DNA of 64,000 nucleotides from Cornus controversa. Its lineage: Eukaryota; Streptophyta; Magnoliopsida; Cornales; Cornaceae. This document shows, piece by piece, positions 1-19,387 of this stretch. The position numbers and the translations under genes were made by a program. Location: the NCBI GenBank assembly GCA_026545225.1, contig CM048848.1, positions 46,192,806 to 46,256,805 on the forward strand, written 5' to 3'. A model generated the notes under the pieces. It was not told where the DNA came from. It did no database searches and worked only from the letters and a program-made list of their open reading frames with translations. Every line of letters begins with the position of its first letter. The stretch's first letter is position 1.

Positions 1-1288
1 ATGATTCTATAATCAAATAATAAAATTGACTTAAAACCACTTGTAATAATAAAGTTCTACCTTTGGGATGGATGTGGAGTCTTTGGAACTCCTTAATTGA
101 AACTATTGATGGGGTTTATGAACCCCAAATGATGGAAAGTGGTCTAAATAGGGGATGGGGCAAAATGTGATGTCTACAACAAATACTCAAGGCAATTAAC
201 CAAAATCACTCATTCCTACAATAGCTAAATCTAATTTGGTCACAACCATCCATTCCAAAACATAGTTCCATACTATGGTTCACCTCCCACACGAGCTTAT
301 CTATGTTTAATAGGAGATCCATGTCATTTCTGCATTGCCCAAAGTCATACCATTTGTGTTCTGTTTGACTTGAATCACATGACCACGTATTCTTTCAATG
401 TTCCTTCACCTTTCTCATTTGGACATTTTTACAAACACAATGTGCCTTCCTTATACGCCCATCCTTGTGGTTCGAATTACTTTCTTAAGCAAGCCAACAT
501 TGGAAAGTTCAAGCATATAACTATAAACCTAGTGTTTATAAGCTTTCCCTTGCTACTGTTGTATACAATGTTTGGTGTGAAATGAATTGATGAATTTGCC
601 AAGGAAAATCATTTCATTCTTCAGTAGTCTTTCAAATAATCATTTAATCTGTTTGATTAAAATTAATGACATGCCCTTTGATTGATTCATTAATTGTGAT
701 ATGCATTGACAGTGAATATGAGTTGTCATCCAATATCCTCTTTTTGCCATCAAGGCCTCCTGACTAATTGGGGCACAAGGGTTCCTCCTGCAAGTTACTG
801 AGTCACCGAAATTATCTGATGTAGACAACAGTCATGAATTTGAAATTGGCTCCTATTAGTACTTTCAACTAGGGCTGCGCCTAGGCTAAAGCCTATTCCT
901 TTTGTTTTGCCCTTTGGGCCTCTGGACGCCTAGTGCATCAAACTGCCCTTTTGGGGGCTGTACAGTTTTTTTGTGTGTGTGTGTGTGTATATATATATAC
1001 ACACACACACACATATTTTGAATGATTATATTGGAATGATAGTATTTGGTTATATTTATATGTATGTCTATATGTGTATTATGAATGCCAGGGAAAAAAC
1101 AATCAAATAGCAAAGTCTTTCTCCCACAAAACACAAAATGTGTATTGTAGAAATCTGCATCGAATTAAATACGAAACGATGTCCTAATATCTTGAATCAT
1201 ATTCTTAATCTTGAACTTTCAAGTATTACATACATATGCATACATATTTCATGAACACTTGTCAGTATTCTTGATTAAATTAAGACAT
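1..1288. other. Intergenic AT-rich DNA, no gene seen
   Basis: No ORF here has the length, composition or motifs of a real exon. The only structured feature is a (TG)n-(TA)n-(CA)n run near 972-1013, which is itself palindromic. The rest is unremarkable AT-rich spacer. Confidence 0.6.
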
Positions 1289-1296
1289 ATATAACT

Positions 1297-1749
1297 AGGG
1301 ATGTCAATTTAACCTACCCTACCGGGACCCCTATTGGGACGGGTTTGGGACCATCCTACCCAATAGGGTTAGGGGTGAATTTGGGAGGAGAGTTTAAAAC
1401 TTGCCAAGCCTCGAGCCCATCTCGATTACTAATAAATATATAAATAAATATTCTTTTACTAGCTATAATTTTTATTTTATTTTATTAATTTCTTATGATA
1501 ATTTGAAATTCTAACGACATTTTTGTTATTATGATTGTTAAATACTTTATTATACTAAAAAAGTTACAAATTTTATCTTACATTTTTAAAGTTTGAACTG
1601 TTTTTCTTTAAAAATATGTATATCGGGGCATCCAGAACTCGTCCCAACTCTGATGTGAAGTGGGGCGTGGCGATTTGAAAAAATATTTTATTCAGGGACA
1701 CATTTTGGAAAGAGGTGTCCGGTCCCGAACCTGCCCAGTTGACATCCCT
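1297..1749. mobile_element. hAT-like MITE, degenerate
   Basis: The ends are inverted copies of each other: AGGGATGTCAA at the left and TTGACATCCCT at the right. The interior has no coding capacity. The flanks resemble an imperfect 8-bp target duplication (ATATAACT on the left, ATACATAACT on the right). The hAT assignment rests on TIR style and the approximate duplication length and is tentative. Confidence 0.5.
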
Positions 1750-2215
1750 ATACATAACTCTCTCTCTCTCAAACAAATTCTTTTAGAAATCAATCTTCTA
1801 TTATTATTGGATAGTATAATTTCATAATTTCAAATGAACCCATTTCTATTCAATTGCAAAACTTGTTGTTAAGAGAATGGAGACAATTATTAAGAACCAG
1901 AATTAACCCGGATCTAATTTTCATGAATATACTACATTTTGTGAATTTGAAGCATGAGTGGCAAAAAAAAAAAAAAACAAGCCACAATGGCATTAAAAGA
2001 ATTGGAGAAAGAATAATGGGCTATGAAAATGCATTAACTAACCTATGTCATGAGGAAATCCACATAAATTAATTTACTTAATTTGCATTAAGTATAACAT
2101 AGATTGAACAAAAAAAAAATTGAATTTAAAGCATTTTTGTTAAACAAAAAACTGCAATGGCATTAGGGGAATTGAATAAAGGATGATGAGCAACAAACAC
2201 ATTTGATTTACTAAA
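1750..2215. other. Spacer, nothing recognised
   Basis: AT-rich DNA with a TC microsatellite near 1760 and poly-A runs. I see no gene or complete element. Confidence 0.5.
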
Positions 2216-3290
2216 GGAAGAGGGAGGGAGGGAGGGATTTTTTTGTGCAAAAGTCAAATACATCTCTGTATTTTTCTCTAGAAAAAGTGGATATCAAGCT
2301 GAAGATTAAAAAACTAATGTTATGTTTAGTACGTAAAAATAGAATGAAATGAAATGCTCATTCCATCCATTCTTTCATTTGGTAGCAAAATTAAGGTGGG
2401 AATGACCATTCCAAGTCTATTCTCAATAATGTAAAAGAATAAAAATTCAATCCACATCTTAACTTATGAAATGGTCATTCCATTCCCAAGAAAATTATGT
2501 TCCAAAAAAACCTCAAGTTCCAATTCCAAAAATCGCTGCCGCCACCACCACTTCCACTGCCTTGTACCACCGCCACCTCCACCGTTTTCCACCATGACCA
2601 TCGCCACCTTCCACCAACGTCACCACCACTGCCGCTGCCACCGTCAAGCACATGTCATCATCACCGATGTTTGGGAGGCAATCACCACAGATTGATTTAC
2701 TAAAGGAAGAGGGAAGGAGGGATTTTTTGTGCAAAATTCAAATACTTCTCTTTATTTTTCTCCAGAAAAAGAGGATATCAAGATGAAGATTAAAAAACTA
2801 ATGCTACGTTTGGTATGTAGGAATAGAAAGAAATGAAATGCCCATTCCATCCATTCTTTTGTTTGGTAGCAAAATTAAGGTGGGAATGACCATTCCATGT
2901 CTATTCTCAAGAATGAAAAAGAATAAAAATTCATTCAACATCTCAACTTATGAAATGGTCATTCCATTCCCAAGAAAATTAGAAAAAAAAATTACATTCC
3001 AAAAAAACCTCACGTTCCAATTCCAAAAATCACCACCACCACCACCATTTCCACTGCCTTGTACCACCGCCACCTCCACCATTTTCCACCATAACCACCG
3101 CCGCTTTCCACCAACATCACTATCACCGCCACCACCACCGTCACCTCCTCCACTGCCGCTACCACCATCATCTCTATTACCTTCCACCACCACCACCACC
3201 TACCACTGCCTTCCACCACCACCACCTATACCATTGTTGCCTTCCACCACCACCATATCCACCGCCTTTCACCACCACTACCATTAACTT
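2216..3290. repeat. Tandem duplication of about 490 bp with CCA-rich minisatellites
   Basis: Two diverged copies of one unit lie head to tail, one beginning near 2216 and one near 2705. Each runs through the same AT-rich stretch and then into a CCACCA/CCGCCA-rich minisatellite (about 2535-2650 and 3025-3285). The copies share long matching blocks, for example the AAATGGTCATTCCATTCCC block near 2470 and 2953. The proline- or glycine-rich ORFs over the CCA runs are artefacts of the triplet repeat. Confidence 0.7.
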
Positions 3291-3996
3291 TAAAAAATTA
3301 TAGAAGAATATTATTTTATTAGTTTAATTTATTTGTCATAGAGGGGTATTTTAGATTATGGGTAAAGTATTAAAAACACCCTCTCTATATACCAAATGTG
3401 CAAAAATTCCCCTACAATGCAAAAAATCCCCCTCACTGTTTACAAAATGTGTAAATAAGGACATTTTGTCAGTTTAAGAGCCCCTAATAGTCTAGTGTCA
3501 TGTTTGGATGACCAAAAAGGGCTCATTCGAATATTAATTTCTTATTTATTTAAAAAAAATGTACAAATACTCCCTTATTTTGACTCGTCGAGCCCATCTG
3601 AAATAATAAAATAATTAAAATATATTTGTAGTTAATATAAAAATAAAAAAATAGAAAATATTACATTCAAACTTGGCACAAGGGTTTTAAAGGTTGTGAG
3701 GGCCATTTTGGTCATTTAAAAAGAAATTTTTGATGGAGGGGGTGTTTGCACAGATTGTAAAAATGCAGGGGGTTATATGCACATAATAAACTACATGGGA
3801 TTTTTTTGCACATTTTGTATATAGCGGAGGTTTTTTTTTGCACTTTACCCTTAGATTATTCAATTTAAATTCATTTAATTCTTACATCATTTCATATTTG
3901 CAACCAATAGAATGAGAATGATCATTCCATTTCATTATTATTCTCACTCTATTCTCACTTGCATTTTATTTCATTCATGCGTATCATACGTAGCCT
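2318..3996. mobile_element. Candidate long TIR element containing a nested MITE
   Basis: Sequence near 2318 (ATGTTTAGTACGTAAAAAT, then GAATGAAATG repeats) and near 2803 (CTACGTTTGGTATGTAGG) is mirrored by the inverted sequence near 3945-3996 (CATTTCATTC, then GCGTATCATACGTAGCC). This suggests a non-autonomous TIR element whose left end was duplicated along with the 490-bp unit. A MULE-type MITE (3360-3850) is inserted inside it. The boundaries are uncertain. Confidence 0.4.
3360..3850. mobile_element. MULE-type MITE with perfect 9-bp TSD
   Basis: A 491-bp element begins GGGTAAAGTATT and ends GCACTTTACCC, with further inverted similarity inward (TATATACCAAATGTGC against GCACATTTTGTATATA). It is flanked on both sides by TTAGATTAT (3351-3359 and 3851-3859). 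A 9-bp target duplication is diagnostic of Mutator-like transposition. There is no transposase ORF, so it is non-autonomous. Confidence 0.85.
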
Positions 3997-4405
3997 AAGT
4001 GTTTTGATATATATAACAGGTAATATAGTAATTTGATTTTTTTGTAATATAAAAGTTAAGGGTAGAATTGACATTTCATCCAAATTTTTGACGTTGGTAA
4101 CCACTCACCGACAATAAGGATGGTCAATATAATAAAAAAATTATTTCGACCTCTGTATGTAATTAGGCCTAATCTCAAAGGATATAAATTTAATTTATTC
4201 TATAAATATTTTAGGCTTCTCTTGAGAAATTGGCAATCAATAGTTATGAATTATGATATGTCCGCTTAAATTTAGGTATAATTAATTTTATTTTTATTGT
4301 AAAGGTCAGGTTCGGGTTTCTACCCTGCCGCCCAAGCCCAAGCCCAAGCCGAATTGAAGTATGCTCAATGGTTTCAGTCTAAAACTCCAAATTCAACTAC
4401 AATAA
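3997..4405. other. Spacer, nothing recognised
   Basis: AT-rich sequence. A short run of CCCAAG units lies near 4330-4350. No gene or complete element was found. Confidence 0.5.
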
Positions 4406-4414
4406 TAAGTAAAA

Positions 4415-4982
4415 GGGTTAAATTCATAAAACCCCCTTCTTTTACCAAAAATTCTCATAAAACCCCCCTATATTAAAAAATCAATCAATTTGCCCCCTCC
4501 CGTTAGTTTTCCGTTGAAATTAACAGAGAAGTCGCACGTGCATCTCACGTGATCTGTTAAGTGGTGTGTAAATGACTAAATTACCCTTGACGCATTTGTT
4601 GAAATTAAAAGGACCAAAATACCCTCATAGTAAGGGGGGTTTTAAGAGAATTTTTTATAGTAGAGGGGGTTTTATGAGAATTTTTTTATAGTAGACGGGG
4701 GTTTTATGATTTTAACCCAATCAAGAAACCCCCTTCTACTTTTTAATTTTCTCAAATTGCCCCTTCGTAAAGGGTACATCCATTATTTACAAATAACCTT
4801 TTTTTTATGAAATTATTGTATTAAATAAAGGAAGGATATTTTGGTAATTTCGTTATCAAATTGACGGAGCCGTTTAATTTTGTCCTTATATGAGAGAAAT
4901 TGATAGTAGATAGGGTTTTTGAAAATTTAGGGGGTTTTATGAGAATTTTTGATATTATAGGGGGGTTTTATGAATTTAACCC
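4415..4982. mobile_element. MULE-type MITE with perfect 9-bp TSD
   Basis: A 568-bp element starts GGGTTAAATTCATAAAAC and ends with the inverted form GTTTTATGAATTTAACCC. It is flanked by TAAGTAAAA on both sides (4406-4414 and 4983-4991). The interior holds several C-tract and G-tract blocks in both orientations and no ORF. The duplication length places it with Mutator-like elements. Confidence 0.85.
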
Positions 4983-5187
4983 TAAGTAAAATTGTCCAAA
5001 CCCTACTAATCTGTATTGGGCTCGATCTAGGTCGGGTCCGACTGAAAAGAAATACTCCATAGCACTAGCAGTATAAGGTTAGGGTTTGAGTGATGAGTTG
5101 TTCAGTGTTGGGCTTTTCAATCACATGCTTTCTTTTTTCAGAAAAAAACTTGCTTACATCAAGGATTTTTTATTGAACTGTTGAACA

Positions 5188-5926
5188 ATGTTTTGTCAGT
5201 CGAGTGATTCCCATGCGTGCTCCTTTTTGGGCATAAACTGCCCCTTTAGCATCCTACTTGCAACATATCCACCAGCAGGAGCAGGGATATATGACCGTTA
5301 CAACAACGTTCCAAATTTTCTAAGTTTAAAAACCTGTCCATTTAGCATTCCTTACTTACTTACCGTTACCCATGTCCACCAGCAGGAGCAGGGATATATG
5401 ACCGTTACAACAACGTTCCAAAATTGTAAGTTCAAAAAACCTGTCCATTTTGCAATCCTTCCTTACTTACCGTTACCCATATCCACCTCAAAACAAAACC
5501 CTCCTCTCTCCTCTTTCATCACCACATGCAAGTCTCCCACAACACAGAACCCGTCTTCTGTTATGATCACCCAATTCATAATTCATGTGATCCCTTTTCT
5601 CTACATTTAGTTTTTGCTTCTTTCTTGTTCATAAGGTATTCGCTCTTTAGTTTTTGCTTCCTTCTTTCCTCTGTTATGATCACCCAATTCATGTGATCCC
5701 TTTTCTATACATTTAGTTTTCCTTCTTTCTTGTTCATAAGGTATTCGCTCTTTGGTCACTTTGAAGTTTAAATCAAATCTGGTTTGAAAACTTGATTTTA
5801 TGACTCAATTTGGGGTTTATTTTTTGTAGCTGTCATCATCATTAAAGTTTGTTGAAGCCCTAGAAGAGTTTCTTTGGGAACAGGAACACGGCAGAGGCTC
5901 CTATTTCACAGACGAGAAGAGGGCGA
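5188..5926 (+). promoter_or_regulatory. Duplicated DUF936-gene promoter and leader, internally repeated
   Basis: This stretch is a diverged copy of the promoter, 5' leader and a slice of exon 1 of the DUF936 gene at 17186. Compare ATATATGACCGTT followed by ACAACGTTCC here with the sequence at 16701-16726, and CATAAGGTATTCGCTCTTTGG at 5738 with 16952. Within it, a block of about 105 bp is tandemly repeated (about 5272 and 5377), and a leader block is also repeated (about 5560 and 5661). The copy skips from the leader (about 5851) into exon 1 sequence matching about 17598-17640, then skips again to sequence matching about 17756. GTAG at 5826-5829 could be the acceptor of a leader intron opened at an AG|GTATTC site. 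It ends where the chimeric Gag ORF begins. Confidence 0.75.
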
Positions 5927-6964
5927 ATGACGACGAAAGAGGGAAGCTCAGCTGGCCTTGTTAGGTCTTCAGTGGGTGATGCCCTTTTGTCTAAAATGGC
6001 GGATTCAGAGGGAGAGAGTCCCTCATTTGTGAGTAAATTTGACCCACCCTTGTTTAGTGGTAACAATTACATTTATTGGAAGGCTAGAATGAGAATATAT
6101 CTCCAAGCCTTAGACTATAAGGTATGGAGAGTCGTTGAAAATGGACCTCATGTACCCACGAAGACCGTAGGAACACAAAATGTCCCAAAGGAAAAAAGTG
6201 AATGGAATATTACTGACCGGCAATTAATTCAGCTCAATGCCAAGGCAATGCACAATTTATATTGTGCATTAGATCAAAATGAATTTATTAGAATCTTCAC
6301 TTGTGAATCGGCCAAGGAGATATGGGACAGATTAGAAATGATCTATGAAGGCACCGAGCAAGTTAAAGGGATCAAAATTAGTATGCTTGAACATACTTAT
6401 GAACTCTTTAGAATGAAATCCGAAGAATCTATTAGTGACATGTTCACTAGATTCACGGATATCATTAATGCATTAGAATATTTTGGTAAGACTTGTACTA
6501 ATGCTGACAATGTGAGTAAAATTCTTAGATCTCTACCAAATAGTTGGGAGCCGAAGGTGACCGCAATTCAAGTAGCAAAAGATCACAGAAAGCTTAGCTT
6601 GGATGAGCTTTTTAGCTCATTGAAGGTTTACGAAGAAGAAACCAAGCAAAAGAAGAGCTTGGCACTCGAATCATCTCGCCATGAGAGTAATGATGATATT
6701 GAAGATGATGAGAGTGAAGAAGATGAGGAAATTGCTATGATTTTTGAAAAACTCAACGGATTCTTGAAGAAGAAAAGATCAATCGGGAGAAGGCCATTTA
6801 AGAGGGATGTGCCAAGAGAAGAATCAAGCAAGAAGGAGCCTCCTACTTGCTTCCATTGTCAAAAACCAGGACACATTAAAGTAGAGTGTCCACAATTGAA
6901 GAAGGAAAGCAAAAAGGAGAAGAAGGAGGTGGCAGTGAAAGCTAGATGGGATGATGAATTTTAG
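5927..6964 (+). CDS. Chimeric Copia-type Gag protein (UBN2 and CCHC), 345 aa
   Basis: The intact ORF encodes a Ty1/Copia-type Gag. A Gag N-terminal region (FSGNNYIYWKARMRIYL, residues about 43-59) leads into a UBN2-type domain (about 75-245), an acidic linker and a zinc knuckle, C308-x2-C311-x4-H316-x4-C321. Known Gag proteins form the particle and bind RNA through the knuckle. No protease, integrase or reverse transcriptase follows, so the element is truncated just after the knuckle. Residues 6-33 are not Gag: they match, in the same frame, the segment from GSS to GESPS of the DUF936 protein encoded at about 17788-17873. The ORF therefore begins in a captured piece of the DUF936 exon and sits behind a copy of its promoter. 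The first ATG of the fused frame is taken as the start. The frame has no stops or frameshifts, which fits either a young event or a maintained gene; the sequence cannot decide. Transcription is unproven. Confidence 0.75.
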   Translation: MTTKEGSSAGLVRSSVGDALLSKMADSEGESPSFVSKFDPPLFSGNNYIYWKARMRIYLQALDYKVWRVVENGPHVPTKTVGTQNVPKEKSEWNITDRQLIQLNAKAMHNLYCALDQNEFIRIFTCESAKEIWDRLEMIYEGTEQVKGIKISMLEHTYELFRMKSEESISDMFTRFTDIINALEYFGKTCTNADNVSKILRSLPNSWEPKVTAIQVAKDHRKLSLDELFSSLKVYEEETKQKKSLALESSRHESNDDIEDDESEEDEEIAMIFEKLNGFLKKKRSIGRRPFKRDVPREESSKKEPPTCFHCQKPGHIKVECPQLKKESKKEKKEVAVKARWDDEF

Positions 6965-7125
6965 AGGGACGTGCCAAGACCAGAATCAAGCAACAAGGAG
7001 CCTCCTACTTGTGTCCATTTTCGAGAACCGGGACCCATTACAGTTGAGTGGACATAATTGAAGAAGGAAAGCAAAAAGAAGGAGAAGAAGGTGGCATGGG
7101 ATGAATTTTTGTTGGCTAGTAATTT
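6965..7125 (+). pseudogene. Decayed tandem copy of the Gag 3' end
   Basis: About 160 bp repeats the sequence at about 6800-6960 (AGAGGGACGTGCCAAGA..., GGAGCCTCCTACTTG, GAAGAAGGAAAGCAAAAAG). The copy has lost coding sense. The second and last zinc-knuckle cysteines are changed (TGT to TTT, and TGT to TGG), and there is an in-frame stop. It is a tandem duplicate of the zinc-knuckle region. Confidence 0.75.
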
Positions 7126-9569
7126 TCATTTATGACTATTTTCATTTGTTGGCTAGTAATTCTCACAGCACAGTTTCTGTATCATCTGGCTGCGAAGGTA
7201 ATTGGTGTTATTATTCATGGTTGAACCTGATAGAGCATGTTCTCTCAGTGCCATATGTTCCAGATATTTTCTATTTGTAACCCTTTTCCACCAATGGTAA
7301 GAATTAAACTTCCAGTTTCAATCCTTTTTTTTAGGTGTAATGCCAGCAATTAACCGCTGTGCTACAACTTTGGCATTTTCTACTCATAATCTTGTCTTTT
7401 ACATTAGTGGTATATTTATATGCAATATATAAATATTTATATATACCTATGTGCTGATGACTTTGACATATGAAAAATGCATCAAAATTTTTGAGCTTGA
7501 GAAAACCACTTAAGAGTTCTGTTTTTGCTTTGATTCATCACATAGTTGGGATTTGTTTGGATAAACCACCTTTATGGAATTGTGTGATTGAAGTCATAGC
7601 AAGGAGTTTTGTTGGGGATCTATCTTGAAGATTGAATAGCCATTTGTTCTTCCACAATCAAGGTAGTGGAGATTTGGTTCATTGTGGTGAATGATAAGGC
7701 TTGTTGCTGCTGTCTAAGTAAAGGTTAATAGAAGAGTTGTTATTTGATGCTTGTGGTTTATCTTTTATTATTATTATTATTATTATCATTATTATTATTG
7801 AGTGGTTATGATTACATAGTGAAATCAAAATAACTATAATCAACCAAAGAATTTAAAAAAATGAAAAATAAGTTTGGTTTTTGGTAGCTAAGTCAATTTT
7901 CATTTAGAAAATTGTTTGTAATTGCTTGAACTATACTGTCTTAGAATCTGCTTTTTTGATTTCTCTTTTTTAACCTATTAAAGTAAAACAAACTCTCTCT
8001 TTGTTCTCTGAAATATAATCACACTAGTCCTCTTACTTTTTTTTTTTTTTTATGTTGTAAATCACTGAAGAGAAAAAATCCATTTGGATGAGAACTCAAT
8101 TCACACTTAAAATTGTATAAATTAAATAATTATTCCAAGACGTGATTTAATGGTGTCTCTTTTCTTTTCTTTTCTAGTAAAAGTAAAAGATAGATAACAG
8201 GTCATGTAAAATGGTTTGAATGTTGTAAAATGGTTTGGATTCGAACCGAATCAATCTTCAGCTGCTTCAAATTTGATAAGGTTATTTTTATGACATGACC
8301 TGTTAAGATAAGAGTGTCTTTTTGTGAGCATGTTAAGTGTTAGTGTACTTTTTGTGAAAAAAATAATGTCAAAATAGATTGCCAAACAATGATTAAAAAA
8401 AAAGTTGGAGAATGCAAATAAAAAGTTCAACAAGAAAAAGAAGAAAATAAGGCATTTGATTCATTGTTAAAGTAAAAATAATAATAATAAAGAAAGAAAT
8501 AATAGAGAGGAAACAAAAAGAAAAATAATGCTAAAAATATTTTGATACTATATAAAAAGTATATATTATATTATGTCACATCGGATGATCATACTTGTTT
8601 AACAAAAACCATAATCCTTCTCTCTACCCTAATGCTTCTCTCCAAGAAACCTATTAGTTCTCTCTCTCTCTCTATATATATATATACACACGTAACACAC
8701 GTACATATTTTCTGTAACATCTACATCTGCCCAAGTTCAGGCTTCAGTGATTTCTCTAGATAAAAAATGAAGGGTAAGTTGTAAATTTCTAATAATTAGA
8801 GCCGCTTGTAAATTTAAATATATATGAGGGCTAACTTGTAAATTTATAATCTCCATCAACATCTTTTCACTAGTTTTGAGTTTTGACCGAATAAGTTGGT
8901 GTAATTTTTGAAAACATAAGGATGGCCACTGTAGGGTACAATATTGGGTACCAACCGTACCATAATTATTGTAATTTAAGTAACATATTTTTTATTATTA
9001 TTATTATGTGATGGTTTTTTTTTTTTTTGTTTTTTATGTTACTCAATTAAAATCCATCAAAATTTTAAAATACACAGTCACATCACATGAGTATTTAAAG
9101 TTTATATAAACTAGTAATTGTAAAAGGAGATGGATCGGGTTAAGCTTAACCTAGGCTAGCATGAACAACAGAGCAAAGTGGTTTGATCACAGATCTTGAG
9201 GTCATTTTATCATGGGCTTCATTAGAAATATGGGCTTGCCCACTAGCCTCATCGAATGGGCTCAATCTTGTTATCCAATTAAGAGCACACCGCATTGGAC
9301 TAGAGATCAACACTAATGGGCTAAATCTTATTGACACTAATGGGCTAAATCTTACTATTGCATCTTAGATTCTCATCAATAACCATGAAAAGCTATATTG
9401 GAGTAGGGAATTATGTCTCATTTCCATCTTGGAGTTTTTTCTTATGGAAAGTTGTTGTTGAGTTATAATTTTATAAATAAAGTTTTTGACTGTTGATTAG
9501 ATTCATGGGAGATATAGGTTTATAGAAATTACTTTTTTAATCAAGATAAACTCTATATTGGAGCAATCT
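7126..9569. other. AT-rich spacer with microsatellites
   Basis: No exon-like ORF is present. Simple repeats include (TTA)n near 7767-7798, poly-T near 8038-8051, TC/TA runs near 8655-8690 and poly-T near 9016. A short repeat (CACTAATGGGCTAAATCTTA) occurs twice in succession near 9311-9352. The first part could include the 3' untranslated part of the chimeric Gag locus. Confidence 0.55.
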
Positions 9570-9570
9570 A

Positions 9571-10218
9571 GGGGTGGCAATTCGTGTTCTCGTATCGTGT
9601 CTATCTATAATTATTCTGCTAAACGGCTCAATTCTAGCCTGACCCATTTAATAATTGTGTCAATAATCCTCAACACCAACCTAACCTGTTTATTAATAAA
9701 CATGTCCTATAATGACATTGCTCATTTAATAACATTTTTAATTCATTTAACTTATATGATATGAGTTTCTCCCTCTAAAAATCTCTCTAAATATCATATA
9801 AAAAATAAAAGTACATTTATATACATAAACCCTAAAATCAAACTATATTATAAATTTTGTATCTATATATAAATTCCAAAAACATACTAAGGTGATTCAA
9901 CAACTAAGAAGACATCATAGCAATCTCATCCTTATATTTACATTTTATGTATATATCAATCCTGTAAACAAACAAATAGATTACAAACTATTGTAATTTA
10001 TATAACTATATATAAATAAGTTTGAATAAAACTAAAATATATGAATAACTCATTTCATAATCATGTCGCGGGTTAAATAGCTTAAAACCAAACCCATCAT
10101 AATTTTTGCGTGTCGTGTTCGTGTTAACCCGTTTATTAAACATGTCGGTTTACCTCAAATTCAAACTCACTTAACTTATGTTATATTTGAGTCGTGTTGT
10201 GTCCAATTTTGCCACATC
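9571..10218. mobile_element. Non-autonomous TIR element, copy A
   Basis: It starts GGGGTGGCAATTCGTGTTCTC and ends CAATTTTGCCAC, with CGTGTCGTG-type repeats at both ends. It has no ORF of note. A second, closely related copy lies at 30475-31180 and matches it along its whole length (for example CCTGTAAACAAACAAATAGATTACAAAC in both). ATCTAG occurs at both flanks. The TIR style suggests a hAT-type MITE; the duplication length is unclear. Confidence 0.65.
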
Positions 10219-10408
10219 TAGAGTGATCACACATGTTATACTTACTCCTAACTCAAGTCACATAATTCTTCTGAATGGGTGTCGCTTTGCGCTCCACGCA
10301 TTTTCTCACTTCACCACTCTCTCTGTATGACATAGAATTTGCTATTTTTGCACTCCTGCTCTGTGTGACTTAGCTTTTAAATAAATCTAGAATTGATTTT
10401 GTACCACA

Positions 10409-11494
10409 AATGACAGGGGAGCCGGTGACTGAAGCCCCAATGAACGGCGGCCGTAACTATAACGATTCTAAGGTAGCGAAATTCCTTGTCGTGTAAGTTC
10501 TGACCCGCACGAAAGGTGTAACAATCTAGGCACTATCTCATAGAAAGGCTCGGCGAAATAGACATGTCTGTGAAGATGCGAACTACTTGCACCTGGACAG
10601 AAAGACCCTATGAAGCTTTACTGCTCCTTGGGATTGGCTTTGGGCCTTTCATGCACAGTTTAGGTGGAAGGCGAAGAAGGCCTCCTTCTAGGGGGCCCGA
10701 GCCATCAATGAGATACCACTTTGGAAGGGTTAGAATTCTAACCTCGTGTCAAGACCTATGGGCCAAAGGAAAGTCTCAGGTAGATAGTTTCTATGGGGCG
10801 TAGGCCTCCCAAAAGGTAACGGAGGCATGTGAAGGTTTCCTCGGGTCGGACGAAGATTGGCCCTTGAATGCAAAGGTAGAAGGGAGCTTAACTGCAAGAC
10901 CCGCCCGTTGGGCAGAGACGACAGTCGGCCTTAGTGATCCGGCGATGCCGAGTGGAAGAGCCATCACTGAATGGATAAAGTTACTATAGGGATAACAAGT
11001 TGATCTTCCCCAAGAGCTCACATCGACGGGAAGGTTTGGCACCTCGATGTCAGCTCTTTGCCACCTGGGACTGTAGTATGTTCCAAGGGTTGGGATGTTC
11101 GGCCATTAAAGCGGTACATGAGTTGGGTTCAAAATGTTGTGAGATAGTTCGGTCCATATCCGGTGTGGGCGTTAGAGCATTGAGAGGACCTTTCCCTAGT
11201 ACGAGAGGACCGAGAAGGACGCATATCTGGTGTACTAGTTATCATGCCCACGGTAAATGTTAGGTAGTAAAGTGCGGAGCGAATAACTGTTGAAAGCATC
11301 TAATTCCCACCCCAAGATAAGTGCTCTCCTATTCCGACTTCCCCAGAGCCTCTAGTAGCACAGTCGGGATAGCGACGAATTCTCTGCCCTTACAGGGATA
11401 GAGTGATAGAAATTTTGAGAATTCAAGAGAAGGTCATGACGAGACGAGTCGTTTATCATTACGATAGGTGTCAAGTGGAAGTGCAGTGATGTGT
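10409..11494 (+). pseudogene. Nuclear plastid DNA: 3' part of chloroplast 23S rRNA
   Basis: Highly conserved bacterial-type 23S landmarks are readable in order: the domain IV/V block near 10454 (CGTAACTATAACGATTCTAAGG), the ACCTGGACAGAAAGACCCTA block near 10591, the peptidyl-transferase loop region, the sarcin-ricin loop ACTAGTACGAGAGGACC-like sequence near 11196, and the final GTCAAGTGGAAGTGCAGTGATG. The style is chloroplast rather than nuclear 26S. From my recollection of plastid 23S, many sites differ by C to T or G to A, and about 7 bases are missing near 11303, as expected of an old nuclear copy that is no longer functional. The 5' two-thirds of the gene and the extreme 3' end are absent. 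The right end stops just before the LTR at 11498. Confidence 0.9.
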
Positions 11495-11497
11495 ATA

Positions 11498-12760
11498 TGT
11501 CACGTCCCAAAAACCATACGGCACTATATTAATCCACATATGTTTCCAAGGCATGACGTAACAATCTGTCAAACAAACCAATGCATAGATACATATTAAT
11601 TTTAGCATCCCAACTCAAAGAAAAAAATTAACTTAAAGGGTTTAAAATTTTAATCCAACTAACTTGAAGGTGGAAACGCGTTCCAAACACCTTTATTATT
11701 ACATCAACATAAGATTAATGTCAAATCCAAACAAAATTCAAAATACAATGTCCTAGAGAATTTCAATGAAAAATAACCAAATAGATAATACTAATAATAA
11801 TAATAATAGTAAGCATAAACGAAAGCGCAACCTCAATTATTCTTCCAATCACCTAAAAAATGTTAAAGGATGGAATGAACTCAACAACCCAGTAAGCAAA
11901 ATACTTGTCTTTCCTAATATAAAATTTTGTTATTTACGTTTCTTAAAATTTAAACATTTTTCTCTAACATAACTAAATAGAACATTTATTAATCAAACAA
12001 ACAATATCAATATAAACATACTTAGAGCAATTAAATATCAATGTATGAAAAGTGTAGGCACAGTCAATTACAATGACATAACTCACATGTATGGTATGAT
12101 AACAAACAATTAGTAATAAATACAAGTGATGCAATGTCATGAATGTAATGTAATGCAGAACTCCTTCCACCACCAGCAACCTCTACTGCGAACCCAATCT
12201 GAAGCTGTCACTGGAAGGATTGGTGTCATCCTAGCATAACATAGATCCTCTAACACGCCTGAAGCTGTCACTGGTGGCCGTCTCTCATACTACCTAGGCA
12301 GTCACCCATGTTCACCCCTAAATGGGTCAATTTGGGACAAGCGCAGTAATTCTGCTCTATCAACTCCATCATGCATGAATTATCAAGTGTTCATGCATCA
12401 TATCAGTTCATGTACTTATTATATCAAGAGTACATTAATACAATTATTCTCAATATTTCAAAGGCATTGTCTGTAGATATAATATCATAGTTTGTAATCT
12501 ACTTAATTTAACAAATTAGTCATTTTTTCATATACTAACACAAAGTTATTGACATCAATTTAATACAATAGAGAATAGAGAGAAATAAGGAAATCTATCA
12601 TTAATTTATTTTATCTAATTTATTTGTATACACTTCAATGGAAACATATTCAATATAAGTGGCTTAACAACTTAAAAACTAAACATATCAATGTAGTTAA
12701 TATGTTTGTAATATTATTCAAGTTGTTTATATTATAAGATGATTTTTTTTACCTGATTAA

Positions 12761-12792
<32 letters not shown>

Positions 12793-13296
12793 TTTTTATA
12801 TTGGACCAAAGCTTATTGCAAATACTACTTTGTATTATATTTACAACTTAATGAATTAAACTCACTCAAAAGTTTCTCCAGAATCTAAGCATAGGTGTAC
12901 AACAAGACAATTCCAAAACACTTAATTAGAATACATATATATATATATACATATGTATATATATGTATATATATGTATATATATTCAATTACGCAAACAA
13001 GTTACGTAACAATAAATTCTTAAACCAAGTATACATGCTCAAACATAGAATTTAATATCAAGCCAAAAGTTAAAACATTCCATAGGTCTAAGCCATCACT
13101 CTGTCTGAGCAAGTTAATTACACACTAATACACATACATGTATATATGTATCTCACATGAAATCTACCGATTTATAGTACCAAATACTAAAATTATGAGA
13201 CCAACCAAAACTCACATATTAGTCACGTCATTATGCTTTTCACAACATATACAATTATATGTATATATCTAAATATATACACAATCACAAGAGTAA

Positions 13297-13347
<51 letters not shown>

Positions 13348-13770
13348 TTTACCATGATTTAAAGGTTAGATATACATTTATTTCATTAAAACAACCCTAG
13401 ATTATAATAAACATATGTTTTCTTATATAATTTTCTTTTGTTTAAAAACCTTAGATAATTAACAAAAACAAATATATTTACTTATCTCTAAAACTTAATT
13501 CTAAGCTTTATAACTCCCTTGTATTCTTTAGTATCTTCTTCTTCTCTTCTCAGGAAAACCTTAATTCTTTTCGTAAAAACCCTAAAAGAAAACACAAAAC
13601 CTTTAAATATTAGAGATTTCTTTCATGGATTAATCTCAAACCATAGATTTAAACCATCTAATCTTAGTCATAGGACTTTTATTTTAATCTAGTGCATGCA
13701 ACCATAGGGTAAGGTCGTGTTCCCACCATTTAGATATTTTATAAATATATTTTTAATTTGGGTCTTTACA
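11498..13770 (-). mobile_element. Ty3/Gypsy long terminal repeat (3' LTR), about 2.27 kb
   Basis: On the minus strand the unit begins TGTAAAGACCC immediately after a purine-rich AGGAGGGTAGAT tract (13771-13782) and ends GGGACGTGACA at 11498. These are canonical TG...CA termini and a polypurine tract. The adjoining sequence to the right, on the same strand, encodes decayed integrase and chromodomain-like sequence, so this is the 3' LTR. It contains TA/TG microsatellites (12766-12788, 12935-12982, 13297-13346) and two short repeats of CTGAAGCTGTCACTGG near 12201 and 12259. The partner 5' LTR is not in the window. Confidence 0.8.
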
Positions 13771-13782
13771 ATCTACCCTCCT

Positions 13783-14535
13783 AAAAGAGAATTTCTTCCT
13801 CGAAATTATAACGTACCTAATCATTGAACGAGTGTGGATATTATTTTCTGATCTCCGCCTCTTGTTCCCATGATGTCTCACGATGTCCCCATTGAATCTT
13901 CACCAACGGAATAGTCTTTTTCTCAAGACTTCTTCTTTACGATCAATAATTTGGATTGGCTGTTCCTCGAAAGAAGCATCCTCTAACCAATTGTCATTCT
14001 ATGACATGAGATGGATCAGTCAAGTATTTTCTCAACATCGATACATGGAATACATTATGTACTGATGAGAGCTGTGATGACAAGGCAAATCTATAAGCAA
14101 ACTCTCTAGCTCTATCTAGTATCTAGAAGGGCCTAATGAATCTAGGTGCCAATTTTTCCTTCCTGTCGAATCGTAAAACCCCATGCATAAGTGAAACTTT
14201 AAGGAAGACATGATCCCCAACTGAAAACTCTAGTTTCCTCCTCCGCATGTCAGCATAACTCTTCTGTCTGCTCTGTGCCGTACGCATCTGATCCTTAATT
14301 AACTTAATCTTTCCATGTCAATATATATCCAGCATACAGGCGATCTATAATGATTCATAAAGCACCATACTGATATTGGATTGATAGCTATTATTGTATG
14401 AGAACTCGATTAAAAATAGACGATCATCCTAATACCCTCCAAAATCTAGAACATAAGCCCTGAGCATGTCTTTAAGAATCTGATTCACCCTTTTGATCTG
14501 TCCGTCTGTCTGTGGGTGAAAGGTAGTGCTGAAAT
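13783..14535 (-). pseudogene. Decayed Ty3/Gypsy chromovirus integrase C-terminus
   Basis: Minus-strand translation, with stops and frame changes, gives recognisable pieces in order: the integrase FHPQTDGQ-type motif near 14515, a DMLRAYVLDF-like helix, SYADMRRRKLEFSVGD followed by a GPY/F-like KVSLMHGVLRFDRKEKLAPRF stretch, and a chromodomain-like WGHRETSWEQEAEIR near 13840-13890. Several in-frame stops show it is dead. It abuts the polypurine tract and LTR on its 3' side and is truncated on its 5' side by TRIM-like sequence. Confidence 0.8.
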
Positions 14536-15110
14536 TCTAAGAGTAAAATCATGCGGGCTTAGGCCCAAAACAGACAATATCATACCATCAGGTGGAGTGG
14601 GCTGTTACAAATAGAATCAGAGCTGGACCCAGCTGGAAGTGTGCTTACAGGAACGTTGGGCCTCTTAAGGGGGTGGATTATGGTGACCTAACGTAATAAC
14701 CTTGTGGGCGAGTGTTTGTGAGTACCACACTGGCGAGCTACAGGTTAGACAATCTCACATCGCCTGGATATAGAGAAAGGGGATGTGCTTATAAGTAGTG
14801 TGTTCTCTCTAAATAGTATGAGGCCTTTTGGGGTAAAACTCAAGAGCAAAATCGTGCGAACTTGGCCCAAAGCGGGCAATATTATACCATGTGGTAGAGC
14901 AGGCTGTTACAAATGGTATCAAAGGTAGAGCCCAACCGGAAGTGTGCCAACAGGGACGTGTTGGCCCCTAAGGGGGTGGATTATGATGACCTTTGTGGGC
15001 GAGTGTGATGTGGGTGGGTGCGAGGCACTAAACAATCTACCACATTCACAAGTTACAGGTGTTACGATCTCACATCATCTGGATAGGTGAATGTGAAGTG
15101 TTATATGTAT
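14536..15110 (+). mobile_element. Tandem array of a TRIM-like LTR element
   Basis: The pattern LTR-internal-LTR-internal-LTR is visible. A first LTR tail ends at 14609 (GGGCTGTTACA). A complete LTR spans about 14745-14911 (167 bp, ending GGCTGTTACA), and a third begins at 15060 (TGTTACGATCTCACATC) and is cut short. After each LTR end come two bases and a tRNA-iMet-type primer-binding site (TGGTATCAAAGG at 14914; degenerate at 14612). The short internal segments match each other (GGAAGTGTGC, TAAGGGGGTGGATTATG). There is no coding capacity. The alternative is an array of LTR fragments from a larger family. Confidence 0.65.
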
Positions 15111-15518
15111 GTTCATTACCTTTCTATGATACGATGTGTTTTAAAGTCATGATGGTTGTGAACTCATCAGAACTCTACAGTTAAACGTGCTTAGCTATGA
15201 GCATTCTCTGGTAAAAGCAGACAATATTGTGTCGAGTAACACTTATACAACACATTTACATCGAATATGTTAAAGAATTTTTTATTTTTTTGTGTATCAA
15301 AGTCATTGTGAATTCTACACAAGATTTTTTGAATCTAATTTAAATTAAATTAATTATATTTTAAGTGAATAGTGTAATATTCATTGATTAACTAAAACTT
15401 AAAAATCATATAAAAATAAATTTAAACGAAAAAAATCAATTGCTCAATGGAAAATTTTTAAAATGTTTTAAATAATGGGGAAAAAAATCAATTTTGCAAT
15501 ACTTCTGATTTGGTAAGC

Positions 15519-15576
<58 letters not shown>

Positions 15577-16689
15577 AAGATAGATCAGAAGTAGGACTAA
15601 TTAATGTTATTAGAAATTGATAGGAGTTAATTGTCTTTTAGAAACAAAAAAATAGAATGTAAACAAAACTTATGTCTTACTTGATTTAAAATTTTCTTTG
15701 TTTAACTATTTAAACTAGTTCCGACATGGGATGCTCTTTATTGTCCTTTATTGTTTGTTGGTGCATTCCACGAATTGCAATCAATATTCACTTTTTATTA
15801 ATAACGTGATGCAAGAACGGTGAAAAGAATCCTAGTGCAGTTCAAAATTCACCTCTTATAGATACTTAAAAGATAGACAATCTTTAGAAGCTATGTCATG
15901 TGACCAGTATACTTATAGCTGAGTGTATTTCTTCAACCTTTCAAACTAAAAGCTTCACCATAGCTTAGGAATGCAATTTGGATGGATTAACTAGATTTCA
16001 ATCCTAAGTGCAGTTTTATTTTTTTTTTACAGATTTGAACAACTATAGTTTAGTTTGGATTGAAAATTTTTAATTCAAACTCAATTAAGATTGAACTTGA
16101 ATTTAGGTGACAACAGCTGAACTCTACCCAAATTCAAATTCTAATATTATTTTAATACATTTTTTTTATTTTAAATAATATATAATATTCAAATTATAAT
16201 CAGCTTTTTCTTTTCAACTTCATTTGTGTAAAAATTTTAGAAATTTGCATTAAGATTTTTTTTTAAAAAAAAGTTGTGCTTAGGAGTAATTTAATATGAA
16301 ATTAACTAAATGTCATTTTAAATTTTTAACGCAGAAATTGGTGTAATTGAATAATTTGAATTAACTCGACTTTCTAATTCAAAATCTCAACTTAAGTTTA
16401 AAACTTCAAGTTGAGTTAATTTAAATTGAATAATTAGAGTTAGCGGTCGGGTTATATCGAGTTAAACTTGAGTTGTATCTCCAATTTGTCCAATCCGTCT
16501 AAGTTGCATTCGGACCACAACTTTTTTTTGGTAGGATAAAAAAATAAAAGAAAGGTAATGCCACATGGTTACTAAAACTGAATTGTCAAAATGTTTGTCC
16601 TGGTTTAATTCACAAGCAAAGCGAGCAACAAACTGAGCAACCGGCATATTCATTCATTCCGCTTAATTCAAAATCATTACGACTCCCAC
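15111..16689. other. AT-rich spacer
   Basis: No gene is seen. A compound (AT)n(GT)n microsatellite spans about 15519-15574. The rest is AT-rich DNA with poly-A/T runs. Confidence 0.55.
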
Positions 16690-17185
16690 ACACCAGCATG
16701 ATATATGACCGTTGCAACAACGTTCCGAAATTCTAAATTTAAAAAACCTGTCCACTCAGCATTCCTACTTACCGTTACCCAGACCCATCTCATAACAAAA
16801 CCCTCCTCTCTCCTCCTCCATAGAGAACCCATCACGCCCTCTCTTACCCACATACCAAAAACCCTTCTTGTAAACATGAAAATGTCACCCAATTCATATG
16901 ATCCCTTTTCTTCGCATTTCGTTGTTGCTTCTTCTCATGTTCTTTAAGTTCACAAGGTATTCGCTCTTTGGTCTCTTTGAAGTTTAAATCGAATCTTGAT
17001 TGAGTACTTGATTTTATAACTCAATTGGGGGTTTACTTCATGTAATTGTCATCGTCATTCAAGTTTCTTGAATTTAGCTTTTGTGTCTTCCATTATTTTT
17101 TTTCTAAATTTCATTTTTAATTTTAATTTTTTTTTGGGGAAAATTTTGTCTTCCATTATTGTGTGGTGTAAAATACTAAAAGTTC
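16690..17185 (+). promoter_or_regulatory. Promoter and 5' leader of the DUF936 gene
   Basis: This is the original of the sequence copied upstream of the chimeric Gag locus. Two ACCGTT sites (16708-16713 and 16771-16776) read AACGGT on the minus strand. The first gives AACGGTCA, the core plus right arm of the M-phase MSA element recognised by plant MYB3R factors. AG|GTATTC at about 16954 looks like the donor of a leader intron. In the Gag-locus copy the matching acceptor region reads GTAG, while here it reads GTAA, so a different acceptor (possibly AAAAG just before the ATG) would be needed. Intron and regulatory roles are inferred. Confidence 0.5.
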
Positions 17186-19387
17186 ATGGCCACATTAGCG
17201 CCTGGAATTCTGTTGAAGCTTCTCAATGGAATGAATTCAGGGATTAAGCCAACAAGTGAGCATCGGAGCTCGCTTTTGCAGGTGACTGACATTGTCCCAG
17301 CCGATCTCGATGAGAAGAATCTATGGCCAAGTCATGGATTTTACATAAAGGTGTCTGATTCTTCGCACTCCATCTATGTCAGCCTACCCTTTGAACAAGA
17401 TGATCTTGTTCTCAGCAATAAAATGCAGCTGGGACAGTTCATTTATGTCGACAAATTGGAGCCAGGATCGCCTGTTCCGGTGGCCAAAGGTGCAAAACCT
17501 ATTCCGGGAAGACACCCTTTTGTGGGCACACCAGAACCAATAATGGGCTTAAGAGAGAAGGGAGAGAAATGTGAGCAAAAGGTAAATTCAAAATTCTCAG
17601 CTCCTAGAAGAGGTTCTTGGGGAACAGGGCAGAATGGGACAGAGGCTATTTCATCCCCATTGACTCTAAAGCCAGTTCCTTTAGATTTTGATCAGTGTAC
17701 ACCGACAAAAGAGCGGCCTAGTTCAGCAAGAATTGGGTTTAATCTTCCTATGTCGCCGATGATAAGAGGGCGATTGGTGAGAGATGGAAGCTCGGGTGGT
17801 GGTGTTAGGTCTTCGGTGGGTGGTGCCCTTTTGTCTAAAATGGTGGACTCAAAGGGAGAGAGTCCCTCATTGGTGAGGAAAAGCTGTGCAACCCCTTCTA
17901 TATCAAAATTCCCAAGGAGCAAGAGTGTCTGCGATCGAGAGCCAAGGATCCCAAGAAGTCCCTTCAACTCAGCTGTAGGTACATTTTTCCTCTGTGCAAT
18001 GCCAGTTAATCTAAGAGAAAATATACTTACACCCCCCATTTTTTCCTAGTTGAGACTTACACACCCACTAGGCTGTAACCCTTGATTTTTTTCATTGATT
18101 CTGTTCTGCTCCAAAGCCAATGTTTCAATAAAGAAATGCAGTAGTTAATTTTTAATTTCTCAATGTAGGAAAAGAAAAGTTCCACTCCACCTCCAAGTTT
18201 ACGGAATGCAAGAGTGGTGGCTTCTCCCAAAATTGGTGGAGGTGCACAGAATTCATCGAATTCAAGGACTACTTCACAACCACAGGCACAGTCTGGTGAT
18301 TCAACCTCCAACAACAACAGTGCCAGTGTACCCATGAGTTTGCCAGGAAAGCTTAGCATTCTGGGGAAGGTGAATTCTAATTTTCAAGCACTTCCTCTTT
18401 CTTTTTTAAGCACAGATTCTTATTGTTGTCTTGACTTCATGGCTTATTATTATTATTATTAGGAAGCTGTGCAGCAGAGAGAAACAGCACAAAAGGTTGC
18501 TCTTCAAGCACTAAGAGATGCTTCAGCCACCGAAACTCTAGTTCGATCCCTCAAGTATAAAATATCTCCATTCACTTGCTTTATAGATTCTTAGTTGCTG
18601 TAAATGATAGTTTACAATTTGTCTTACACCTTTTGACTTGTAAAAAATTTGTAATGGCAGGATGTTTTCGAATTTGAGCAAATCAGCAAAAACAGATGCT
18701 CCAGCAGCATGTTTTGATCAGTTTCTGGAGTTTCATAATGAAATTGTGCAGGCATTAACCGAAATGGTGTCCATACAAGCGGCAACTGCAACTAGTGAAA
18801 TGGCTCAAACCACAAACACAGAACTGAAAGAAACTGTTGGTAAACAGCCAGATGAAGATACCCCAATCTTACATGAAATTGTGCACAATTCCATGGATCA
18901 ATACAGAACCTCTGACTCAAACTCATCTAAGAGAAGAAATGCATTGTACAAATCAATTGCAGCCTTTCCTGAAAGAAGTAATCAAAAGACAATTTTGGGG
19001 AAGAGTTCATCAACTTTTAACCAGAAGTCGTCCTTGGAGAGAAAAGGAGGGACTCCACTTGGCAAACTGTTCCTTGAGCCCACAATTGAGAATGATGAGA
19101 ACAAGAAACCGTCCTCTTGCTGCCTAAGCAATACAATCAAATTGGGAAAGCAGATAGAAACTGAAGCCGGGAACTGGTTCATGGACTTTCTTGAGAAAGC
19201 TCTGGAAACAGGTCTAAAGAAATCAAAAGGTACTGTGGAAGCAGACGCTCGAAAAGTTCCACAGTCTGTCATACTGAAGGTTATTAACTGGGTGGAAGTG
19301 GAACAGTGTGATTCTAGTAAGAGGCCGGTGCATCCCAGAGCAGCACAGATGGCCAGAAAATTAAGGATCAAGATGAAGAATCCTTGA
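17186..19387 (+). CDS. DUF936-family plant protein, 602 aa, four exons
   Basis: The exons are 17186-17974, 18169-18369, 18463-18554 and 18661-19387. All use GT-AG sites and the frame is continuous. The N-terminal 115 residues carry the typical family opening ([16 protein letters not shown], then [30 protein letters not shown] and [36 protein letters not shown]). The middle is Ser/Pro/Arg-rich and probably disordered ([21 protein letters not shown]). The C-terminal exon has a conserved helical block ([20 protein letters not shown]) followed by a basic end. The biochemical role of the family is not established, so I assign none. The ATG is the first in the exon and opens the conserved N-terminus. 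Length is usual for the family. A slice of exon 1 (about 17598-17640 and 17756-17873) and the promoter are copied at the chimeric Gag locus 11 kb upstream. Confidence 0.9.

What the first reader, a model, noticed from the sequence alone, without database searches (positions are those of the whole stretch)
5188..6964. DUF936 promoter and exon slice fused in frame to an intact Copia Gag
A partial copy of the DUF936 gene (promoter, leader, and two pieces of exon 1) runs directly into a Copia-type Gag. The captured segment keeps its original reading frame (the GSS to GESPS match, about 28 residues) and supplies the N-terminus of a 345-aa ORF with a complete UBN2 region and CCHC knuckle but no pol. 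This is the layout expected of a new chimeric or domesticated Gag gene under a host promoter.
Basis: partly seen in the sequence, partly recalled or inferred. Interest (0 to 1): 0.8.

Follow-up and report, generated by a model that had tools for sequence, protein, structure and literature searches.

The report
Retrotransposon Gag fused to gene fragments
In a plant chromosome, broken pieces of two ordinary genes have been joined to a piece of a jumping-gene capsid gene, leaving one long readable frame that evolves much like unneeded DNA, although a weak or new function is not ruled out.

Summary
Window 5264-6037 is a rearranged copy of the promoter, leader and two exon-1 pieces of the DUF936 gene 11 kb downstream (K about 0.16). 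It runs into a Copia gag fragment, giving an open 345-aa frame (5927-6964) with Retrotran_gag_2 and CCHC matches. The copy holds none of the DUF936 domain itself. The gag is residues 21-331 of a 588-codon gag frame of an abundant family; no pol follows.

The mosaic goes on: 7159-7390 and 7936-8086 are pieces of a third donor locus on contig C3, same orientation.

Evidence for a gene under selection is mixed. Gag-branch omega is 0.65 or 1.29 depending on outgroups, not distinguishable from 1. The DUF936 part has dN/dS 1.0. Family-invariant residues are lost about as often as in a dead sibling. Against pure neutrality, the frame has no stop where 1.4-5.6 are expected, depending on the clock, and the in-frame gag tail changed less than its out-of-frame tandem copy (4 versus 14, p=0.03).

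Most likely an accidental DNA mosaic whose frame is still open; a Drt2-like Gag gene remains possible (about 0.2).

The parts
5264..5856 (+). Copy of the DUF936 promoter and 5' leader, with internal tandem duplications (5264-5370/5371-5477 and 5554-5651/5667-5756)
   Evidence: 74-86% identity to 16700-17072; K2P 0.164 (5400-5530) and 0.157 (5737-5850)
5861..5898 (+). First DUF936 exon-1 piece (donor about 17602-17646); about 0.5 kb holding the parental ATG and the DUF936 domain is missing before it
5899..6037 (+). Second DUF936 exon-1 piece (donor 17746-17881), parental reading frame kept
   Evidence: 82% identity; NG86 dN/dS 0.995 over 35 codons
5927..6964 (+). Open frame of 345 aa: 37 residues from DUF936 exon 1, then Gag; a second in-frame ATG lies at 5996
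6044..6957 (+). Copia gag fragment (residues 21-331 of a 588-codon family gag frame); Retrotran_gag_2 at 6095-6655, CCHC knuckle at 6845-6895
   Evidence: nearest relative is a broken element at C2:70080015-70080936, 76% identical
6958..7096 (+). Tandem copy of the gag tail (copy of 6796-6934, offset 162 nt), beyond the stop codon; three of four zinc ligands lost
   Evidence: 86% identity; 14 derived changes versus 4 in the in-frame copy
7159..7390 (+). Piece of a C3 locus: exon end plus following putative intron
   Evidence: 89% identity to L055 5060-5279; intron part K 0.058
7644..7922 (+). Stretch matching C6:45164056-45164301, nature unknown
   Evidence: 78% identity
7936..8086 (+). Further collinear pieces of the same C3 locus
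   Evidence: 7936-7963, 7963-8037 and 8045-8086 match L055 7484-7511, 7639-7714 and 7866-7907
16700..17881 (+). Donor stretch of the complete DUF936 gene (ATG 17186; coding frames to about 19387)

Best explanation
The locus is a single-copy DNA mosaic. Shown: a partial, rearranged DNA-level copy of the neighbouring DUF936 gene (promoter, leader and two exon-1 bits), a gag fragment of a Sirevirus-like Copia family, and pieces of a C3 locus lie in a row on one strand. Shown: the DUF936 bit and the gag are in one open frame, and no pol follows. Inferred: the pieces were joined by illegitimate DNA repair (template switching or filler DNA), not by retrotransposition, because a promoter and an exon-intron boundary were copied and I found no LTR pair or transposon end around them. 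Inferred: the frame is open mainly by descent from an intact gag plus luck. The encoded protein, if made at all, has evolved with little or no amino-acid constraint.
For: Donors, order and orientation. Promoter copied with the exon. No direct repeats of 40 nt or more flank the gag in the repeat finder listing of 1-20000 apart from the tail duplication and the DUF936 copies; no Helitron-like 3' end under my criteria. Uniform K of about 0.16 in promoter, leader and ORF piece. dN/dS of the DUF936 piece 0.995, 12 nonsynonymous and 4 synonymous changes. Gag-branch omega 0.65 (omega 1 gives 2dlnL 0.68; background 0.22) or 1.29. Changes confined to this branch at family-invariant residues: 10, or 8 without the two junction residues, against 12 in the dead C2 sibling.
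Against: On the DUF936 clock (d 0.08-0.12) 3.8-5.6 stops are expected and none is seen (P 0.02-0.004; simulation 0.036-0.010; lower still with indels). The one indel seen in the gag relative to the three relatives compared is an in-frame 21-nt deletion, and the indel in the DUF936 ORF piece is 3 nt. The in-frame tail copy has 4 derived changes against 14 in the tandem copy beyond the stop, 2 of 20 sites unclear (p=0.031). The younger C3 clock (K 0.058) makes survival unremarkable (P 0.07-0.26), but the clocks disagree.
Confidence: 0.62

Rival explanations
1. A young host gene: the copied DUF936 promoter drives a stand-alone Gag (N- and C-terminal capsid domains plus one zinc knuckle). It would co-assemble with Gag of the abundant resident family and disturb particle formation, as Ty1 p22 and yeast Drt2 do.
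For: Frame survival; slower change of the in-frame tail; predicted helical core at residues 151-240 with pLDDT block means of 73-88, whose best solved match is the Drosophila Copia capsid (E 3.1e-6), with Ty1 p22 and Drt2 capsid C-terminal domains at TM 0.80 by target length but E 0.03-0.12. Intact family members occur in the genome, so a target exists.
Against: Omega not below 1; losses at family-invariant residues as in a dead sibling; only 52% aa identity to the intact copies, so co-assembly is doubtful; several short upstream ORFs in the copied leader; HIV capsids also match weakly, so the fold match is generic; mean pLDDT is only 56.9.
Confidence: 0.2
2. Gene-fragment capture by a DNA transposon (Helitron or Pack-type) that carried DUF936, gag and C3 pieces together.
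For: Several donors, all on one strand, DNA-level copies with introns. A possible 5' TC end (TCTGTATTG) at 5010.
Against: No CTRR end with hairpin in 8001-16600 (+) or 1-5260 (-) under my criteria. No long terminal inverted repeats around the mosaic in the listed pairs (one search listed 25 of 34). The mosaic and its left flank are single copy. A donor only 11 kb away fits local duplication.
Confidence: 0.13
3. Retrotransposon-mediated transduction of host sequence (Bs1-like) or a TR-GAG element.
For: Gag next to host exon sequence.
Against: No LTRs or terminal repeats found around the gag; gag truncated at both ends; donor promoter included; unrelated C3 DNA follows.
Confidence: 0.05

Closest known systems
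Plant domesticated GAG fusions HadGAG1-3 and Ctrg10 (PMC9784723: passages and section 2.6 seen; Wang and Han 2021 seen only as a citation there, not held)
   Same: Copia-type GAG domain (PF14223; a CCHC knuckle in HadGAG2) without flanking LTRs, joined to host sequence.
   Different: Those carry recognisable host domains (USP7, PC4/KELP, NTF2), have 4-10 exons, are transcribed and have homologues in other species. Here only about 37 residues from a non-domain part of exon 1 are joined, and transcription and orthologues are untested.
DRT2, a domesticated Ty1' gag relic in yeast (PMC10951436: abstract, outline and section on the locus seen), and Ty1 p22 (PMC4599808: abstract and outline seen)
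   Same: Truncated gag with an intact frame over the capsid C-terminal domain in a relic locus, while intact relatives exist in the genome.
   Different: DRT2 and p22 have shown transcription and restriction activity. Here nothing functional is known, and resident intact copies are only about 52% identical.
Bs1 of maize, a retroelement with transduced gene pieces (PMC13317346: passages and section 5 seen; the primary paper is not held)
   Same: Host gene pieces and gag-type sequence form a new chimeric frame.
   Different: Bs1 is a retroelement that transduced transcripts; this locus is a DNA-level mosaic without LTRs and with promoter and intron DNA.
shGAG subgenomic RNA of Copia elements such as EVADE (PMC8892269: abstract and outline seen)
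   Same: Yields Gag without Pol.
   Different: shGAG is an RNA isoform of a complete element; here the DNA itself is truncated.

Membership tests
Domesticated (co-opted) Gag gene | Gag domain with an intact frame, outside a complete element | tested here: met
Domesticated (co-opted) Gag gene | Purifying selection on the protein after separation from the element | tested here: inconclusive
   Omega 0.65 or 1.29, 1 not rejected; DUF936 piece 0.995; against that, frame survival and the tail test
Domesticated (co-opted) Gag gene | Orthologues in related species | not testable with these tools
   The assembly has no relatives in the held set
Domesticated (co-opted) Gag gene | Transcription and translation | not testable with these tools
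   No RNA data at hand; only copied promoter DNA and upstream ORFs seen
Gag-host domain fusion protein | A recognisable host domain joined to Gag | tested here: not met
   Pfam finds three gag/knuckle-type families only; the DUF936 domain (residues 4-120) is missing from the copy
TR-GAG or other LTR element | Terminal repeats flanking the gag | tested here: not met
   No flanking direct-repeat pair of 40 nt or more around the gag in the listing for 1-20000
Helitron capture | 5' TC and 3' hairpin-CTRR ends | tested here: inconclusive
   Only a weak 5' candidate at 5010; no 3' end by a simple scan
Pack-MULE or Pack-type capture | Long terminal inverted repeats around the captured pieces | tested here: not met
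   (25 of 34 pairs listed): the long pairs are AT-rich or belong to the repeat at 4414-4983

The most novel reading that the evidence does not exclude
A new plant gene in the making: a stand-alone Copia Gag under a duplicated DUF936 promoter, kept open by selection while its sequence changes fast (omega after the fusion at or above 1), acting as a trans-dominant inhibitor of resident Copia elements in the manner of Drt2. Its start at codon 24 would lie one residue from the position of the family Gag's own start in the alignment.
Probability: 0.17. Interest if true: 0.72.

Novelty: new member of a known kind. Interest (0 to 1): 0.36.

Why it matters
If functional, it would be a plant case of a Gag-derived gene caught soon after birth, with its promoter donor, its element family and an internal neutral control (the tail copy) all readable in one genome. 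As it stands, it is a well-resolved example of how DNA mosaics yield long chimeric frames. It also shows that an intact frame plus a copied promoter is not enough to call domestication.

Tried and rejected
Parsimony polarisation by codon position gave a flat 24/23/21 pattern and 52 nonsynonymous to 16 synonymous changes on this branch. I replaced it by codon likelihood because the conserved-outgroup filter biases it. Pol remnants at 7110-7290: a peptide looked like a Copia motif by eye, Pfam found nothing, and the stretch proved to be C3 DNA. Hidden DUF936 3' parts in 7050-16600: only AT- or repeat-like short hits. Naming the C3 locus: no Pfam family at 0.001, one sub-threshold hit at E 0.087; Sec1-family MIP3 is my recollection and comes from no call. 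Two-phase branch model: omega after fusion 1.98, 1.52, 1.24 and 1.06 for assumed neutral lengths 0.06, 0.08, 0.10 and 0.12. At 0.06 omega 1 is rejected upwards (2dlnL 5.78); I do not rest on this because the length is uncertain and the model lacked L003. Paper searches; no held paper has DUF936, gag and retrotransposon together.

Full report
Setting. The window lies at C4:46192806-46256805 of a 772-Mb assembly in 61 contigs; no related genomes are held. That it is a plant is inferred from the DUF936 gene (Pfam: plant protein of unknown function) and the Copia content. Only three ORFs of at least 150 aa exist in the 64 kb: two parts of the DUF936 gene and the 345-aa ORF of the finding, the longest.

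The DUF936 part. BLAST of the region against the window shows matches of 5286-5372, 5393-5651 and 5680-5856 to 16700-17072, and of 5899-6037 to 17746-17881. Global alignment adds a short exon piece at about 5861-5898. The copy carries tandem duplications of promoter and leader, lacks about 0.5 kb with the parental ATG and the whole DUF936 domain (parent residues 4-120), and lacks about another 0.1 kb between the two exon pieces. Divergence is even: K 0.164 in the promoter, 0.157 in the leader and 0.166 in the ORF piece. The exon piece stays in the parent's frame, but 12 nonsynonymous to 4 synonymous changes over 35 codons give dN/dS 0.995 (start and indel codons left out). So the frame match is descent, not evidence of constraint. 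The start codon at 5927 replaces a parental TTG; a second ATG at 5996 is in AAAATGG. Upstream ATGs at 5526, 5563, 5585, 5676, 5691 and 5800 open short frames that end before 5927; the parent leader also has some. The promoter claim is sequence homology only.

The gag part. Pfam gives Retrotran_gag_2 (E 9.5e-33) and zf-CCHC. A genome search with the protein scored 128 of 4369 candidates; the best other hits are 52% identical. The DNA search shows a nearer, broken relative at C2:70080015-70080936, 76% identical over 6053-6964 of the window at most, with three stops in this frame and indels of 1 and 2 nt. The intact family (L030, L031) has a 588- or 585-codon gag frame, pol in another frame (1049 codons open in L030), a further ORF after it and direct repeats of 522 and 839 bp at the ends of the fetched stretches, 100% and 99.8% identical. 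I call this Sirevirus-like from memory of that lineage's layout. The window gag corresponds to residues 21-331 of the 588, and neither the rest of gag nor pol is found in 4001-9500. Of 12 other gag loci examined the same way, 11 have pol beside them; L044 does not in the fetched stretch.

The tail duplication as internal control. 6796-6934 is repeated at 6958-7096 (86%), offset 162 nt, in frame. The stop that ends the ORF lies at the start of the second copy (AAG in the first copy, TAG in the second). The sequences at the ends of the two copies suggest that the unit includes a few bases of non-element flank, so the duplication probably followed the truncation of the gag; this is inference from few bases. 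With four outgroup groups, 14 differences are derived in the second copy, 4 in the in-frame copy and 2 of 20 are unclear (binomial p=0.031; maximum-likelihood branches 0.149 and 0.018). Three of four zinc ligands are gone in the second copy and all four are present in the first. This is the best single sign of constraint, but the sample is small.

Codon models. With W, L002, L003, L004, L006 and L007 (298 codons) the background omega is 0.22 and the window branch 0.65. Values of about 0.31-2.6 are within 3.84 of the best 2lnL, and 1 costs 0.68. With L030 and L031 in place of L003 and L007, the branch omega is 1.29; 1 costs 0.08 and 0.3 costs 6.2. At 91 positions invariant in the outgroup groups, 10 changes are private to the window gag (2 of them junction residues), 12 to the dead C2 copy, 6 positions changed differently in both and 5 in the same way; at variable positions 48 of 127 differ between the two. 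The window gag therefore does not protect conserved residues better than a dead sibling (8 versus 12, p=0.50).

Frame survival. A random substitution makes a stop in 4.5% of cases in this ORF. With neutral length 0.08-0.12 per site, 3.8-5.6 stops are expected and P(none) is 0.023-0.004 by formula and 0.036-0.010 by simulation; indels lower it further. Combining survival at d=0.10 with the one-sided tail test gives p=0.0014. On the clock of the C3 piece (K 0.058), P is 0.07-0.26. The joins may have different ages. The window was also picked because it has a long ORF, among thousands of gag candidates in this genome, so these p-values are too small as they stand.

A third donor. 7159-7390 matches C3:75956059-75956278 at 89%. 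The first part continues a 224-aa open frame of that locus to a GT splice-donor-like site, and the rest is intron-like. Further pieces at 7936-7963, 7963-8037 and 8045-8086 match the same locus in the same order. Between them, 7644-7922 matches a C6 stretch at 78%. Thus DUF936, gag and C3 pieces stand on one strand. No terminal repeats or Helitron-like 3' end were found, and the left flank is single copy. DNA-repair mosaic is my best reading; capture by a DNA transposon is second.

Structure. AlphaFold2 with four sequences gives mean pLDDT 56.9 and pTM 0.34. Block means for residues 151-240 are 73-88, and the DUF936-derived N-terminus is about 27-37. Foldseek against the PDB has one match below 0.001, the Drosophila Copia capsid (E 3.1e-6); Ty1 p22 and Drt2 C-terminal domains align at TM 0.80-0.83 by target length with E 0.03-0.12, among many weak HIV capsid matches. 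The capsid fold is thus plausibly kept, which descent alone also explains.

Literature. Gag domestication by fusion to host proteins is already described in plants (PMC9784723, passages and section 2.6) and in yeast as the restriction factor gene DRT2 (PMC10951436, abstract and one section). Ty1 p22 inhibits particle assembly through Gag (PMC4599808, abstract). Bs1 is a plant chimeric gene built in a retroelement (PMC13317346, section 5). The kind is therefore known, and this locus is an unproven candidate or, more likely, a by-product.

Verdict. Observation confirmed and extended; interpretation partly supported. Most likely an unselected mosaic with a still open frame (0.62); a host Gag gene about 0.2.

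Noticed in passing
window 4414-4983: High-copy repeat of about 570 bp with inverted ends of about 54-67 nt next to the mosaic; 94-96% identical copies across the genome (40 of 628 candidates scored; ends). Looks like a MITE.
   Followed up: partly
window 8349-8570: A repeat of about 220 bp with dozens of copies at 70-76% identity elsewhere in the genome.
   Followed up: no
window 7159-8086 and L055 (C3:75951000-75960900): Degraded partial copy of a C3 locus with open frames of 224 and 523 aa and no Pfam family at 0.001; looks like a Sec1-family MIP3 gene from memory only.
   Followed up: partly
window 2239-3282: Tandemly duplicated block (259 and 159 nt units, 87-92%) with CCACCACC-rich repeats.
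   Followed up: no
window 5295, 5363, 5402, 5470 and 16709, 16772: CCGTT motifs, two in the parent promoter and four in the duplicated copy; they recall mitosis-specific MYB3R-type sites, a motif name from memory.
   Followed up: no
window 14628-14992: 62-nt direct repeat, 81% identical, spaced 303 nt; 14719-14903 and 14539-14601 also match the fetched C6 stretch in inverse orientation.
   Followed up: no
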